Shown here piece after piece: positions 51,262 through 64,000 of a stretch of DNA of 64,000 nt. Position 1 is the stretch's first letter, and each line of letters opens with the position of its first letter. Origin of the DNA: Blautia schinkii DSM 10518 (lineage in GTDB: Bacteria > Bacillota > Clostridia > Lachnospirales > Lachnospiraceae); NCBI GenBank assembly GCA_000702025.1, contig JNKJ01000006.1, positions 236,803 through 300,802 on the forward strand. The letters run 5' to 3'. The notes under the pieces were generated by a model, which was not told the DNA's origin, ran no database searches, and saw only the letters and a list, made by a program, of their open reading frames with translations. Both the position numbers and the translations under genes were made by a program.

Positions 51262-52854
51262 ATGTTAAAGAATCGACAAGAACGCTATATGCTCACAAAT
51301 GAAACCATTGATCTGTTGTCCATATTATGTTTGGAAGCATTGACGGAAGCCGGGACAGAGGGAAAGGATATCATTCGTATACGGTTGTCTCTGGAAGAAA
51401 TCCTGGAGGTATGGAAAAAGGAGCTGGGAACTGCAGAAGTATATTTCCGTACGGGAAGAAAATTCGGCAGACAGTATATCGAGTTTGGTGTGAAAGGCCG
51501 ACAGCTTGATGTGATGAACGAAAAAGAAGATTTTTTTCTGTGCAGCAGGCTGCTTGCCCAGGCGGGTCTGAGCTTAGTGTATACATATCAGAACGGCGTA
51601 AACCGTTTGACAATAAATCCTCCCGGCAAAAAACAGACAGGACAAATAGTACAGCTTCTTTTGGCAATCTTGTGTGCAATTGTGCTGGGCTTTGTGGTAC
51701 GGGGACTCACGGATGTGTACAGTAATCGGGTCCAAATGGTGACAGAACCGCTTTTTCATATGCTTCTGGGACTGCTGCGCGCCATTTCTTCACCTTTGAT
51801 ATTTCTGTCAATCTGTTGGGGGATTATCAGCATTGGGGATTTATCGGCGGTTGGCACGATAGGGAAACAGGTTGCGTTAAGGTTCGTCATAAGCACCTTT
51901 CTCCTCTGCGCAGTCACAGCGCTTTTCATATGCTGGCTTTTTCCTCTCACACAGGGAGGAGCAGGGAATCTTTCAGGTGGAGCCGCGGATATTTATAAAA
52001 TGCTTCTGGATATCGTACCCTCAGATATTGTTTCACCGTTCTTGAACGGAAATGCGCTGCAGATTATCTTTCTCGGAGTGTGCACAGGCATTGCGCTGTT
52101 GGTGCTGGGGGACAGAGTGTCGGATGTCCGAAATATCATCATCCAGGCAAACGAGGTGGTACAGTTTTTTATGACACTGATGGGAAAGCTGATTCCATTT
52201 TTTGTTTTCTTGAGTATTTTCTGTGTGCTCCAGTCGGAATTCGGTGCAGGATTCACAGGCGTTGTCAAGGTTTTCATGATTGCGGTTCCGGGATGTGCAC
52301 TGGCAGTGGCCGTATATCTGTTGATGCTGAAGCTGCGTTTTAGGGTCGGGGTAAGGGTTCTCATAAAGAAAATGCTACCTACGTATCTGATTGGATTAAG
52401 CACGGCATCTTCGGCAGCGGCCTTTGCCACAAATTTGGAAACTTGTGAGAAGGAGCTTGGGATTCCGCGGAAGGTAGTTAATTTTGCCGTTCCGCTGGGG
52501 CAGGTTATTTATAAGCCGGGCGGAGTAATCGGATTTCTGACGGTTTCTCTGTGTATGGCACAATGCTACCAGGTAGATATTACTCCCGTGTGGCTGGTCA
52601 CCGCGGTTTTGATCGTTAGTCTTCTCGCCATGGCGGCGCCGCCGATTCCGGGCGGTGCGCTGACCTGCTATACGGTGATGTTTGGGCAGCTTGGCATTCC
52701 GGGGGAGGCCATTGCTGTGGCGGTTGCCATCAATTCCGTACTGGATTTTATCATGACGGCGGCAAACCTTACGTGTCTCCAGGCAGAAGCAGTGTTTGCT
52801 GCGGACCGCCTCAACATGCTGGACAAAGAAAAGCTTTACAAAAGGAAAAGGTGA
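51262..52854 (+). CDS. Dicarboxylate/amino-acid:cation symporter (DAACS) with N-terminal GHKL-like domain
   Basis: 530 residues from ATG 51262 (AGGGAGGG site). Residues 1-120 are a soluble domain resembling a degenerate GHKL ATPase: 'IIRIRLSLEEILEVWKKEL' in N-box position with the Asn lost, then strands, then 'SRLLAQAGLSLVYTYQNGVNRLTI'. Residues 128-530 are the DAACS transporter: about eight helices, hairpin 1 serine-rich loop 'LIGLSTASSAAAFATNLETCEK', helix 7 'VNFAVPLGQVIYKPGG' and hairpin 2 'AAPPIPGGALTCYTVMFGQLGIPGEA'. It should import dicarboxylates, glutamate or neutral amino acids with Na+ or H+. It is the first gene of the partner-switch locus. The fused N-terminal domain is unusual. 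Confidence 0.82.
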   Translation: MLKNRQERYMLTNETIDLLSILCLEALTEAGTEGKDIIRIRLSLEEILEVWKKELGTAEVYFRTGRKFGRQYIEFGVKGRQLDVMNEKEDFFLCSRLLAQAGLSLVYTYQNGVNRLTINPPGKKQTGQIVQLLLAILCAIVLGFVVRGLTDVYSNRVQMVTEPLFHMLLGLLRAISSPLIFLSICWGIISIGDLSAVGTIGKQVALRFVISTFLLCAVTALFICWLFPLTQGGAGNLSGGAADIYKMLLDIVPSDIVSPFLNGNALQIIFLGVCTGIALLVLGDRVSDVRNIIIQANEVVQFFMTLMGKLIPFFVFLSIFCVLQSEFGAGFTGVVKVFMIAVPGCALAVAVYLLMLKLRFRVGVRVLIKKMLPTYLIGLSTASSAAAFATNLETCEKELGIPRKVVNFAVPLGQVIYKPGGVIGFLTVSLCMAQCYQVDITPVWLVTAVLIVSLLAMAAPPIPGGALTCYTVMFGQLGIPGEAIAVAVAINSVLDFIMTAANLTCLQAEAVFAADRLNMLDKEKLYKRKR

Positions 52855-52865
52855 GGTAAGAGACG

Positions 52866-53642
52866 ATGGAGGACTACAATTATGAAATTGCCCTGATCAC
52901 AGCGACAAAAATGGAGACTGCGGCAGTGATGCAGATGTACAGAAATTGGGTAAAAATATATCTCGATAATGATACACAGACTTATTATGAAACAGGCTTT
53001 CTCCGTGACGGAAAGCAGTACAGGATTGTCACCACACAGCAGAATGCCATGGGAATGACTGTTGCGGCAACGCTTTCCATGAAGCTCATTGAGCATTTCC
53101 GGCCAAGGTATCTGATTGCGGTAGGCATTGCGGCAGGTGTGGCTCTGGAGGACGTGGAGGAGCAGATGTACGGAGACGTGGTGGTGGCGGATGAAATGTG
53201 GGATTATGCCACCGGGAAATTTGTAAGCCCGGATAAGTCTGATATACGGTATGGAAATGTAGGATTTCTTCCCCGTCCGACGGTGATAAAAATAAGCCCG
53301 GAGCTTCGCAGATGTGTGGAGAGGGCGGCTGATTCCGAGAAAAATCAATGTCATGTATATATCGGCGCTATGGCCACAGGGTGTGCAGTGGTGGCTAACC
53401 GGGAAATCCTGGATAAGCAGATACATTCACAGTTCCGGCATACCGTTGCCCTGGATATGGAGGCCTACGGCATAGCTTATGCGGCAGAAAATGCAACCGC
53501 ACCCCGGCCGGAGTCGCTGATCATTAAAAGTATCAGCGATTTTGCCGACAGCAGCAAGGACGACCAGTATCAGAAATTTGCAGCTTATACCAGCGCAGAA
53601 TTTGCAAGACTTTTATATGAAGAATTTCTGCCGTTGGACTAG
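52866..53642 (+). CDS. Nucleoside-phosphorylase-fold protein (MTA/SAH nucleosidase-like)
   Basis: 258 residues from ATG 52866, 11 bp after the symporter gene (GGTGAGGTAAGAG site). PNP/UDP-phosphorylase fold: 'EIALITATKMETAAVMQMY', 'AMGMTVAATLSMKLIEHFRPRYLIAVGIAAGV', 'YGDVVVADEMWDYATGK', 'VALDMEAYGIAYAA' with the purine/ribose-contacting Met-Glu, and 'LIIKSISDFADSSKDD' with the catalytic Asp. It resembles 5'-methylthioadenosine/S-adenosylhomocysteine nucleosidase but with an unusual N-terminal part. This variant fold is also found as a signalling module. It may make or break a nucleoside signal for the locus. Confidence 0.75.
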   Translation: MEDYNYEIALITATKMETAAVMQMYRNWVKIYLDNDTQTYYETGFLRDGKQYRIVTTQQNAMGMTVAATLSMKLIEHFRPRYLIAVGIAAGVALEDVEEQMYGDVVVADEMWDYATGKFVSPDKSDIRYGNVGFLPRPTVIKISPELRRCVERAADSEKNQCHVYIGAMATGCAVVANREILDKQIHSQFRHTVALDMEAYGIAYAAENATAPRPESLIIKSISDFADSSKDDQYQKFAAYTSAEFARLLYEEFLPLD

Positions 53643-62522: not shown

Positions 62523-62614
62523 AGGGCACAGGTTGATGGTATTTTTCGGAAAGGCTTCCATGGCAGATCGGATGATTTGCGGCAGGCTTTATGACAGACG
62601 AGGAGGTATAGAGA

Positions 62615-64000
62615 ATGCAGGCAATGATGAGCGCGGTGCGCGATAAAAAGAACTGGATACGGCTTATAATGTCCGCTGTTTTGTTTTTGGCGGTGGCGCT
62701 GCCTTTTAGAAAGCTTCTTTCGCTGATGCCGGGGATCACGGAGATACGGCCGGCGAATGTGATTCCTCCGGTGCTGGGGCTGATATGGGGTCCGGCTGCG
62801 GCTTTTGGCATTGCCATCGGAAACTTGATTTCCGATATCCTGTCCGGGAGCAATGTCTTTGTCTGTACAACAGGATTTATCGCAAACTTTATCTATGCCT
62901 TCCTGCCCTATAAGCTGTGGTATTCCTTCCGGGTGGATGAGACGGACGTATATCCTACCCTTGGCAGCGTTAAAAAGATTTTGAAATATATCTATGTCAT
63001 ACTTTTAGATTCTCTGGTGGTTACGGGGATGCTGTCCCTCATCTTTGAGACGGCTGGCTTTTCCGGCAGCGGCAGCTCTTATGCGCTGTTGTTCTTTAAT
63101 AACTTTGATTTCTCAGTGCTGCTGGGTGTGCCCATCCTCATCCTCCTGGCCCGGTACCGCCCGGATTACCATGTGCCGGATACCCGCAGGATAAAGCCCG
63201 GGAGCTACCTGTTTTTCGACATCCTGCTGTTTATAGCGGCTGGCATGGGGCTTTTGTGGTTTGGAATCTCCTTTATGATGGGTGCGCCGGTGGAGAGCCA
63301 TACGGCTGCGGCGCTGCTGGTGGTTGCCATAGGCTTATCGCTGTCCTCTCTTGCAAAGCCCTTTAATTTTGACCTGAAGCCCCAGAGGCAGAACACAAGG
63401 GAGGTACGGACTACCATTAAGACTAAGGTGGTCATCGGTTTCCTCATGCTGTCAGTCATATTTATCGCATTTGTGGGGGTGACGGCCTACAATTCCAGGA
63501 CTGGTGCAGACGCGCTGGCTCACTGGAGTTATGTGTACCGGACGGTGGGGCTGGCCATTAACATGATATTTGCCGTTGCTATTGTATTTCTATGGTATGT
63601 GGAGCGTAATATCGTTGACCCGTTGGAGCGGCTTTCGGAAAATGTCCGGGAATTTGCTGCACAGCCGGCGGATTCCGGCCAGATCCCAACGCCCAGGCTG
63701 ACTCAGATCGATACCGGCGATGAAATCACGCTGCTGGCGGATTCCTGCAACTCAATGATGCAGGATATTACAGCCTACATGCATGATCTGAGGGCCGTTA
63801 CCGCAGAAAAAGAGCGTATCGGCGCAGAGCTGTCGGTGGCGACCCAGATACAGGCATCCATGCTGCCGTGCATTTTCCCGGCATTCCCCGGACGTCCGGA
63901 ATTTGACATATATGCCACCATGACCCCGGCCAAGGAGGTGGGCGGCGACTTCTATGACTTTTTCCTGGTGGATGACGACCACCTGGCTATGGTCATTGCC
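62615..64000 (+). CDS. Membrane SpoIIE-type PP2C phosphatase with HAMP-like linker (3' end outside window)
   Basis: 462 codons visible from ATG 62615 (GAGGAGGTATAG site); no stop before the window end. Residues 15-245 have six or so helices and resemble a QueT/ECF-S-like substrate-binding membrane domain ('IPPVLGLIWGPAAAFGIAIGNLISDIL'). Two further helices bracket a short outside loop (265-340), and a HAMP-like stretch follows ('ERNIVDPLERLSENVREFA', 'TGDEITLLADSCNSMMQDI'). Near 400 the phosphatase begins: 'ERIGAELSVATQIQASMLPCIFPAFPGRPEFDIYATMTPAKEVGGDFYDFF', with the metal-binding Asp of GGDFYD. It would dephosphorylate STAS proteins of the locus in response to a membrane signal. Confidence 0.9.
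   Translation, partial: MQAMMSAVRDKKNWIRLIMSAVLFLAVALPFRKLLSLMPGITEIRPANVIPPVLGLIWGPAAAFGIAIGNLISDILSGSNVFVCTTGFIANFIYAFLPYKLWYSFRVDETDVYPTLGSVKKILKYIYVILLDSLVVTGMLSLIFETAGFSGSGSSYALLFFNNFDFSVLLGVPILILLARYRPDYHVPDTRRIKPGSYLFFDILLFIAAGMGLLWFGISFMMGAPVESHTAAALLVVAIGLSLSSLAKPFNFDLKPQRQNTREVRTTIKTKVVIGFLMLSVIFIAFVGVTAYNSRTGADALAHWSYVYRTVGLAINMIFAVAIVFLWYVERNIVDPLERLSENVREFAAQPADSGQIPTPRLTQIDTGDEITLLADSCNSMMQDITAYMHDLRAVTAEKERIGAELSVATQIQASMLPCIFPAFPGRPEFDIYATMTPAKEVGGDFYDFFLVDDDHLAMVIA

What the first reader, a model, noticed from the sequence alone, without database searches (positions are those of the whole stretch)
51262..64000. Transport-centred partner-switching locus: STAS, GHKL and PP2C modules fused to or interleaved with three unrelated transporters
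Within 13 kb, one strand encodes a DAACS symporter with an N-terminal GHKL-like domain, a single-chain ABC amino-acid importer with a C-terminal GHKL-like domain, and a MATE exporter with a C-terminal canonical RsbW-like domain. They are interleaved with a free STAS protein, a free RsbW-like kinase, a STAS-phosphotransferase fusion and a membrane SpoIIE-type phosphatase. These are the phosphatase, antagonist and kinase of an RsbU/V/W or SpoIIE/AA/AB circuit. No sigma factor was recognised in the locus. The inference is that phosphorylated or free STAS proteins gate the transporters directly, so uptake and export change post-translationally with the phosphatase's signal. I know of no described system of this build.
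Basis: partly seen in the sequence, partly recalled or inferred. Interest (0 to 1): 0.93.

Follow-up and report, generated by a model that had tools for sequence, protein, structure and literature searches.

The report
Transporters wired to a stress-switch circuit
A bacterium carries nutrient importers fused to copies of a signalling kinase that lack its ATP-binding residues, in one gene cluster with that kinase's usual partner proteins; the partner protein is predicted to dock on these copies and likely switches the importers on or off directly, a use of this circuit that our literature searches did not find described.

Summary
Between 51262 and 64000 lie an SLC1 symporter with an N-terminal RsbW-like domain, a one-chain amino-acid ABC importer with a C-terminal RsbW-like domain, and a MATE exporter with a C-terminal RsbW domain, among STAS, STAS-APH and SpoIIE-type phosphatase genes.

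Corrections. (1) The symporter and ABC domains look like pseudokinases: the G1 Asp is W/F in 69 of 69 ABC tails and hydrophobic in 23 of 23 symporter domains, and the Gly-rich lid is gone. The MATE domain keeps most motifs. (2) The free "kinase" at 54168 lacks the G1 region; an intact RsbW starts 570 bases past the window end. (3) The locus continues into an NHLP-type peptide exporter.

The architecture recurs: of 32 ABC-tail loci, STAS lies nearby in 19 (0.6 expected) and SpoIIE in 13. In a Sphaerochaeta MAG the only STAS, SpoIIE and above-cut-off RsbW-type kinase detected sit in one cluster with both tagged importers; no SigB/F/G-type sigma factor passes its cut-off there.

Best reading: dephosphorylated STAS docks on the tags and gates the importers; this is inferred, not shown. 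One relative has an ECF sigma gene beside RsbW, and about half of the newly drawn loci lack nearby partner genes.

The parts
51262..52854 (+). SLC1/DAACS symporter (aa 130-508 SDF) with N-terminal RsbW-like pseudokinase domain (aa 1-122)
   Evidence: Pfam SDF 205.7 bits; HHalign to RsbW set 93.7%; element order in model; no Asp at the G1 position and no lid motif in 23 of 23 rows
52866..53642 (+). PNP_UDP_1 family nucleosidase/phosphorylase (MTA/SAH nucleosidase-like); a relative lies in L012
   Evidence: Pfam 69.2 bits; NCBIfam best 72.9, below cut-off 169
53747..54070 (+). free STAS protein (anti-anti-sigma type), motif YVSSAGLR; the start may be 53774
   Evidence: Pfam 52.8 bits; TIGR00377 64.3 bits over cut-off 53.45; motif
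54168..54536 (+). free RsbW-like pseudokinase: 55% identical to the intact RsbW, G1 box region missing in frame
54561..57968 (+). single-chain polar amino-acid ABC importer: three SBP_bac_3 stretches, permease, ATPase, C-terminal RsbW-like pseudokinase (aa 1017-1135)
   Evidence: Pfam; HHalign 95.9%; model pLDDT 83.4; G1 Asp position W (67) or F (2) in 69 rows
58075..59262 (+). STAS (YISSAGLR) fused to an APH-type phosphotransferase
   Evidence: Pfam STAS 47.0, APH 67.9 bits; TIGR02172 105.8 against cut-off 228.2
59502..60800 (+). 432-aa protein with weak similarity to adenosylhomocysteinase; second copy on contig C46
   Evidence: NCBIfam 42.2 bits, below cut-off 275; in a draw of 299 family genomes only this genome (two copies) and two weak hits
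60801..62522 (+). MATE exporter with C-terminal RsbW domain that keeps Glu, Asn and the G1 Asp; Ala stands at the G1 Gly
   Evidence: Pfam MatE 48.6, HATPase_c_2 66.2 bits; residues
62615..64000 (+). membrane SpoIIE/RsbU-type phosphatase (653 aa; ends at coordinate 64576, outside the window) with weak QueT-like N-terminal region and weak HAMP
   Evidence: Pfam SpoIIE 164.8; QueT 28.1 (cut-off 33.7); HAMP 18.9 (cut-off 25)
50203..50886 (-). OmpR-type response regulator, divergent neighbour, recurrent beside related loci
   Evidence: Pfam Response_reg 90.3, Trans_reg_C 60.8 bits; homologues in 9 of the 32 loci
46483..48714 (-). sensor histidine kinase, probable partner of that regulator
   Evidence: Pfam HATPase_c 97.2 bits; HisKA 22.2, below cut-off

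Best explanation
This is a partner-switching gene cluster whose targets are likely transporters instead of a sigma factor: the unphosphorylated STAS protein is predicted to dock on the RsbW-like domains fused to the symporter and the ABC importer, which lack ATP-binding motifs, and would thereby gate uptake. Shown: the gene order, the fused domains and their kinship to RsbW, the loss of ATP-binding motifs in the symporter and ABC domains, their retention (with one Gly-to-Ala change) in the MATE domain and in full in the RsbW gene just after the window, the conserved STAS motif, and the recurrent clustering. Inferred: a membrane or outside signal acts on the SpoIIE-type phosphatase, which removes phosphate from STAS; STAS then binds the pseudokinase tags, which cannot phosphorylate and release it; RsbW and probably the MATE domain phosphorylate STAS and reset the system. 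Untested: whether docking opens or closes the importers, and what the substrates are. The two-component pair next door would set expression, and the NHLP exporter looks like an accessory of the same island.
For: Both tags align over most of their length with RsbW-type kinases. G1 Asp position: W 67 and F 2 of 69 ABC tails; V/I/L/A/M in 23 of 23 symporter domains; lid motif 0 of 69 and 0 of 23; MATE domain keeps Glu, Asn and Asp 18 of 18. The glutamate pair of the N-box helix is kept in 69 of 69 ABC tails and in 15 of 15 tails of a second set, whose G1 position is aromatic in 15 of 15 (one of the 15, L080, is the same contig as seed locus L017). STAS in the held DNA of 19 of 32 ABC-tail loci against 0.63 expected, P 9e-26; SpoIIE 13 of 32 against 0.65, P 1e-14. 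STAS motif Y[VIL]SSAGLR in 24 of 24 distinct STAS domains (repeats of one gene counted once) and 4 of 4 more. Second set: 7 of 15 loci (7 of 14 without L080) hold STAS, SpoIIE or RsbW; L081 has STAS, SpoIIE-RsbW, tagged symporter and tagged ABC in tandem. Among 390 other genomes of the class the two tags co-occur in 3 (0.15 expected, P 2e-4). Sphaerochaeta MAG (L034/G655): one STAS, one SpoIIE, one HATPase_c_2 over cut-off, all in one cluster with both tagged importers; no SigB/F/G over cut-off. SigF query: no hit in the 32 loci or in L080-L098.
Against: No binding or transport data. L013 has an ECF sigma gene directly before RsbW, and the second copy in this genome has an ECF-like gene about 9.5 kb past its RsbW. 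Thirteen of 32 seed loci have no STAS in the held DNA; 8 of 15 further loci have no STAS, SpoIIE or RsbW; 0 of 4 symporter-only loci (L095-L098) have one. ABC tails still have an Asn in 65 of 69 rows one residue beyond the usual N-box place, so loss of ATP binding is predicted, not proved. The MATE domain has Ala for the G1 Gly in 18 of 18 and lacks one lid Gly in 5 of 18, so its activity is not certain. HHalign of the symporter domain against the MATE domain alone gave nothing (0.5%; the reversed control scored higher). PDB profile searches with the two tags found no GHKL chain, and structure searches were filled by the transporter part. Most of these genomes also carry SigB/F/G-type sigma genes elsewhere (29 of 33 over cut-off).
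Confidence: 0.55

Rival explanations
1. The tagged transporters are sensors, not targets: substrate flux changes how much STAS the pseudokinase tags hold, and this sets the activity of RsbW toward some other, unlinked target (a transceptor arrangement).
For: Transporters that double as receptors are known (CbrA, search listing); the tags sit on unrelated transporter families and at either end of the chain, as expected of plug-in reporters; the SpoIIE protein has a weak QueT-like N-terminal region.
Against: No unlinked target was identified; in the Sphaerochaeta MAG the only detected STAS, SpoIIE and above-cut-off RsbW lie in this cluster.
Confidence: 0.2
2. A conventional circuit: RsbW holds a sigma factor (for example an ECF sigma), and the transporters are merely its neighbours; the fused domains are relics.
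For: L013 has an ECF sigma gene 23 bases before RsbW; the C46 copy has an ECF-like gene on the same contig; most of these genomes carry SigB/F/G-type genes somewhere.
Against: No SigF hit and an ECF hit only in L013 among the 32 loci; none in L080-L098; the tags keep the glutamate pair, an aromatic residue at the G1 site and a first-helix motif in distant relatives, which relics would be unlikely to do.
Confidence: 0.13
3. The module controls the neighbouring NHLP peptide exporter, as BtrU/V/W bears on secretion in Bordetella, and the amino-acid transporters feed or protect that pathway.
For: RsbW, a short HlyD-like protein and NHLP ABC genes follow SpoIIE in both copies of this genome (in C46 a GGDEF-like gene stands between); L012 and L013 have NHLP ABC genes too.
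Against: NHLP ABC1 matches over 900 bits occur in only 2 of the 32 loci, whereas STAS and SpoIIE recur widely.
Confidence: 0.08

Closest known systems
RsbU/RsbV/RsbW and SpoIIE/SpoIIAA/SpoIIAB partner switching (sigma B, sigma F)
   Same: STAS antagonist with conserved Ser motif, GHKL serine kinase, SpoIIE-type phosphatase, genetic linkage
   Different: No SigF-like gene found in the related loci; RsbW-like domains, two of them apparent pseudokinases, are fused to transporters; STAS motif is SSAG where the genome's own SpoIIAA has DSSG
BtrU/V/W of Bordetella (passages of PMC8256260 seen)
   Same: Partner switching tied to a transport/secretion process
   Different: Acts on type III secretion; no transporter-kinase fusion in the passages seen
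MlaB-MlaF (STAS protein bound to an ABC ATPase; abstract of PMC7367683 seen)
   Same: A STAS protein acts on an ABC transporter ATPase after translation
   Different: MlaB binds the ATPase domain itself; the abstract names no kinase, phosphatase or RsbW-like tag
CbrA-type transporter-histidine kinase fusions (search listing only)
   Same: Transporter and GHKL ATPase in one chain
   Different: CbrA has histidine kinase domains of a two-component system; here the symporter and ABC domains are RsbW-type and lack ATP motifs
LacS with fused EIIA-like domain (passage of PMC10710835 seen)
   Same: Transporter carrying a plug-in regulatory domain governed by protein phosphorylation
   Different: The domain itself is phosphorylated by HPr; here a separate STAS protein is the likely phosphoprotein

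Membership tests
Rsb/SpoIIA-type partner-switching system | STAS protein with phosphoacceptor Ser | tested here: met
   TIGR00377 64.3 bits over cut-off 53.45; motif in 24 of 24 and 4 of 4 STAS domains; which Ser is the acceptor rests on recall of SpoIIAA Ser58
Rsb/SpoIIA-type partner-switching system | GHKL serine kinase with intact N, G1 and lid motifs | tested here: met
   RsbW at L001:14573-14983, just past the window (73.6 bits; motifs). The MATE domain meets it in part: Ala at the G1 Gly
Rsb/SpoIIA-type partner-switching system | SpoIIE/PP2C phosphatase | tested here: met
   164.8 bits against cut-off 25
Rsb/SpoIIA-type partner-switching system | Linked target sigma factor | tested here: not met
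   None in the window's ORFs with SigF and two ECF-like queries, and no SigF hit in 32 related loci; an ECF sigma in 1 of 32 (L013)
Rsb/SpoIIA-type partner-switching system | Phosphorylation-dependent exchange of binding partners | not testable with these tools
   Needs biochemistry
GHKL ATPase/kinase (for the symporter and ABC tags) | Kinship and element order of the RsbW fold | tested here: met
   HHalign with shuffle control; models
GHKL ATPase/kinase (for the symporter and ABC tags) | Structural match to a solved GHKL protein | tested here: inconclusive
   Symporter model: lists filled by the SLC1 part. ABC model not searched. Tags not folded alone
GHKL ATPase/kinase (for the symporter and ABC tags) | G1 Asp and Gly-rich lid for ATP | tested here: not met
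   0 of 69 and 0 of 23
SLC1/DAACS symporter | SDF domain over Pfam cut-off | tested here: met
   205.7 against 27.9 bits
MATE exporter | MatE domain over Pfam cut-off | tested here: met
   48.6 against 24.9 bits
NHLP/NHLM peptide export system (downstream of the window) | ABC1 peptidase/permease/ATPase (TIGR03796) | tested here: met
   935.2 against 853.3 bits
NHLP/NHLM peptide export system (downstream of the window) | ABC2 (TIGR03797) | tested here: inconclusive
   607.5 against 709.4 bits, but the protein given was cut by the locus end
NHLP/NHLM peptide export system (downstream of the window) | HlyD-type secretion protein (TIGR03794) | tested here: not met
   35.2 against 156.2 bits, first 52 profile positions only

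The most novel reading that the evidence does not exclude
A post-translational control system, spread over Clostridia and at least one spirochaete, in which a phosphorylation-switched STAS protein plugs into RsbW-derived pseudokinase sockets on unrelated importers, turning the sigma-factor partner switch into a direct gate for nutrient uptake, with an exporter (MATE-RsbW) carrying the opposing live kinase so that export and import are set against each other.
Probability: 0.4. Interest if true: 0.95.

Novelty: new variant of a known kind. Interest (0 to 1): 0.85.

Why it matters
If true, partner switching, known mainly as a way to free or hold sigma factors, also controls transporters directly. 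It would give a fast, phosphatase-driven control of amino-acid uptake in Clostridia and a spirochaete, explain why transporters carry RsbW-like domains, and offer a modular socket placed on two importer families as an apparently dead kinase and on one exporter family as an apparently live one. It makes the question of how partner switches work without a sigma factor directly testable with small soluble domains.

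Tried and rejected
PDB profile searches with the tag alignments gave no credible match (best E 0.21 and 0.064). HHalign of the symporter tag against the MATE tag alone failed, and its reversed control scored higher (21.5 against 14.6); the wider RsbW set was needed.

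Rows dropped: symporter alignment A1 leaves out P0001 (own), P0012 and P0025 of 25 hits; ABC alignment A2 leaves out P0050 (own), P0074, P0089 and P0099 of 72; MATE alignment A3 keeps 17 of 24 hits plus the window. (92 of 392 genomes) also counts free kinases, so it is not used as a count of fusions. Of its 20 fetched loci, 19 hold a MATE match and 7 a SpoIIE match beside it (about 1.5 kb of flank; one of the 7 is this genome's C46 copy). HlyD in 3 of 32 includes a 73-aa fragment in L020 and is not used as evidence of NHLP. Of the 7 MATE loci, the L012 protein has no RsbW tail by Pfam and that of L026 is below cut-off (26.1 against 27.4 bits). The second set is not wholly independent: L080 is the same contig as L017 by length and match position, and L093 and L094 come from one genus.

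Considered and rejected: that the tags are chance extensions (conserved in 25 and 72 proteins); that 54168 is the circuit's kinase (G1 region missing); that a stop codon breaks the STAS gene on C46 (the stop flagged is that gene's own end); that the promoter and terminator scan delimits operons (15 promoter-like sites against 16.6 in shuffles, 18 terminator-like against 14.2). No tRNA in the window.

Literature: ten searches of open-access PMC papers listed no description of STAS, RsbW and SpoIIE acting on transporters through fused RsbW-like domains; I saw listings, one abstract page and passages of two papers. Subscription papers are not covered.

Full report
WHAT IS THERE. The window is bases 236803-300802 of contig C4 of an unnamed 6.68 Mb genome. 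The genes of the cluster are on the + strand. In order: symporter with N-terminal extra domain; PNP-family enzyme; STAS; a short RsbW-like protein; one-chain ABC importer with C-terminal extra domain; STAS-APH fusion; a 432-aa protein with weak similarity to adenosylhomocysteinase; MATE with a C-terminal RsbW domain; membrane SpoIIE-type phosphatase. Past the window end come an intact RsbW overlapping the phosphatase gene (window coordinates 64570-64980), a short HlyD-like protein and the two ABC genes of an NHLP-type peptide exporter, then a CstA-type protein and a small peptide with a Gly-Gly leader (by reading). The first sigma-like gene I saw downstream is an ECF-like reading frame about 15 kb past the window (L002:9509; by reading, not scanned with Pfam).

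WHAT THE FUSED DOMAINS ARE. Pfam recognises only the MATE domain (66.2 bits). The other two were compared, profile to profile, with eleven RsbW-type sequences: seven free RsbW proteins of these loci, two MATE domains, one SpoIIE-fused kinase domain and the genome's own SpoIIAB (A8). The ABC tail aligns at 95.9% probability over 112 columns and the symporter domain at 93.7% over 106. Forty column-shuffled versions of the RsbW profile never scored above 16.9 and 16.5, against 54.8 and 46.6 for the real one; reversed profiles scored 13.2 and 13.8. The AlphaFold2 models place strands and helices in the same order in both (symporter mean pLDDT 70.9, ABC 83.4). A structural match to a solved GHKL protein was not obtained, because the transporter part filled the lists for the symporter and the ABC model was not searched.

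THEY LOOK LIKE PSEUDOKINASES. Over 69 ABC chains the G1 Asp position is Trp in 67 and Phe in 2, with the following Gly kept in 69. In the 15 tails of a second set it is Trp 4, Tyr 8, Phe 3; in the 34 aligned rows of the 32 seed loci Trp 31, Tyr 1, Ser 1 and one gap, the Ser being a second ABC ATPase of L034. Over 23 symporters it is Val 18, Ile 2, Leu, Ala and Met one each, and the N-box Asn, placed by its distance from the Glu, is present in 4 of 23. ABC tails do have an Asn in 65 of 69 rows, but one residue further on. The lid motif is absent in every row of both. Yet the Glu pair of the N-box helix stays: both in 69 of 69 ABC rows; of 23 symporters all have the first and 22 the second (the other has Asp). 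A domain that loses catalysis but keeps a conserved surface is what a docking site would look like; that is inference. The MATE domain keeps Glu, Asn and Asp in 18 of 18, though with Ala at the G1 Gly (18 of 18) and a lid Gly missing in 5 of 18. The downstream RsbW keeps all motifs. The small protein at 54168 is 55% identical to that RsbW but lacks the G1 box region.

THE CLUSTER RECURS. A scan of one genome per species with the ABC-tail alignment gave 32 loci, in records titled Lachnospiraceae, Oscillospiraceae, other Clostridia and a Sphaerochaeta MAG, among others. Within the held DNA (4 to 20 kb) STAS occurs in 19 of 32, SpoIIE in 13, RsbW-type kinase domain in 12, tagged symporter in 8, MATE in 7 and STAS-APH in 3; 24 of 32 have at least one of the first five. 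With the genome-wide counts, chance would give 0.63 and 0.65 loci for STAS and SpoIIE (P 9e-26 and 1e-14; the loci share descent, so these are guides). At genome level STAS is found in 31 of 32 and SpoIIE in 31 of 32, sporulation copies included. In L013 the STAS and ABC reading frames overlap by four bases. A further draw of 391 genomes of the class found the ABC tail in 13 and the symporter domain in 6; without the window's genome 12 and 5, shared by 3 (0.15 expected, P 2e-4). Of its 15 other ABC-tail loci, 7 hold STAS, SpoIIE or RsbW (7 of 12 genomes); one of the 15, L080, repeats seed locus L017, so 7 of 14 are new. L081 has STAS, SpoIIE-RsbW, tagged symporter and tagged ABC in a row. Against this, 8 of the 15 show none in the DNA held (up to 10 kb on each side), and 0 of 4 symporter-only loci do.

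THE CLEANEST CASE. L034 (Sphaerochaeta sp. MAG) carries an ABC ATPase, cut by the locus start, with a further HATPase_c_2-like tail (24.5 bits, below cut-off), an amino-acid binding protein (71.7 bits), a second binding protein (34.0 bits, just below cut-off), STAS, a 5TM-LYT-type SpoIIE-RsbW fusion, tagged symporter and tagged ABC; the last four genes are 12 to 40 bases apart. In that genome these are the only STAS, the only SpoIIE and the only HATPase_c_2 over cut-off, and no SigB/F/G family member reaches its cut-off: the two hits score 132 and 117 bits against 234. The MAG may be incomplete.

HOW IT LIKELY WORKS. In the known scheme (recalled), RsbW binds and phosphorylates the STAS protein, and the phosphatase restores binding. 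Here the phosphatase, the STAS with its conserved motif (24 of 24 and 4 of 4) and an intact kinase are present, while transporters bear RsbW copies without ATP motifs. The simplest reading is that unphosphorylated STAS docks on those copies and alters transport. The sign of the effect and the substrates are unknown; the best NCBIfam matches of the ATPase are cystine and glutamine systems, below cut-off.

RIVALS. Transporters as sensors, a hidden sigma factor, and control of NHLP export are set out above. The strongest single fact for a sigma factor is L013, where an ECF sigma gene (Sigma70_r2 57.7 bits) precedes RsbW by 23 bases. NHLP ABC1 is found with over 900 bits in only 2 of 32 loci, so it looks like an accessory.

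COMPARISON WITH WHAT IS KNOWN. STAS acting on an ABC ATPase is known for MlaB (abstract of PMC7367683). Partner switching tied to secretion is known for BtrU/V/W (passages of PMC8256260). Plug-in domains on transporters are reviewed in PMC10710835, whose main text does not contain STAS, anti-sigma, partner, GHKL or MlaB. CbrA joins a transporter to a histidine kinase (search listing). None of these, as far as seen, has RsbW-type pseudokinases on importers. I therefore call it a new variant of partner switching, not a new kind of signalling.

Noticed in passing
L003 (contig C46, - strand), 6657-18572: Second, rearranged copy in the same genome: STAS, 432-aa protein (83% identical), MATE-RsbW (88%), SpoIIE, RsbW, GGDEF-like protein (by reading), HlyD-like, NHLP ABC1 and ABC2; the tagged symporter and ABC importer are not among its matches.
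   Followed up: partly
L002:1931-2221 and L013:16806-17141: Small peptides with leaders ending ...ELDQVTGG and ...ELDEVNGG near NHLP exporters: candidate exported peptides (by reading).
   Followed up: no
window 59502-60800: 432-aa adenosylhomocysteinase-like protein, two copies here and only two weak hits in the other genomes of a 299-genome family draw.
   Followed up: partly
L062, L063: MATE-HATPase_c_2-HD-CE three-part fusions of 884-889 aa.
   Followed up: no
L027:3542-5212 and homologues in L012, L026, L028, L030, L032: GH3-family gene recurrent in these loci; in L027 it lies between the SpoIIE and MATE genes.
   Followed up: partly
L083, L085, L088-L094: A broader set of separate 359-367 aa polar amino-acid ABC ATPases with the same kind of C-terminal tail, aromatic at the G1 site.
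   Followed up: partly
window 62615-63400: The SpoIIE-type phosphatase starts with a QueT-like membrane region, a possible ligand sensor; 28.1 bits, below cut-off 33.7.
   Followed up: no
L013:17558-18220: ECF sigma gene directly before RsbW in one related locus.
   Followed up: partly
G000 relatives: The six same-genus genomes listed have no match to the MATE RsbW domain at 1e-12, so the locus may be patchy within the genus.
   Followed up: no
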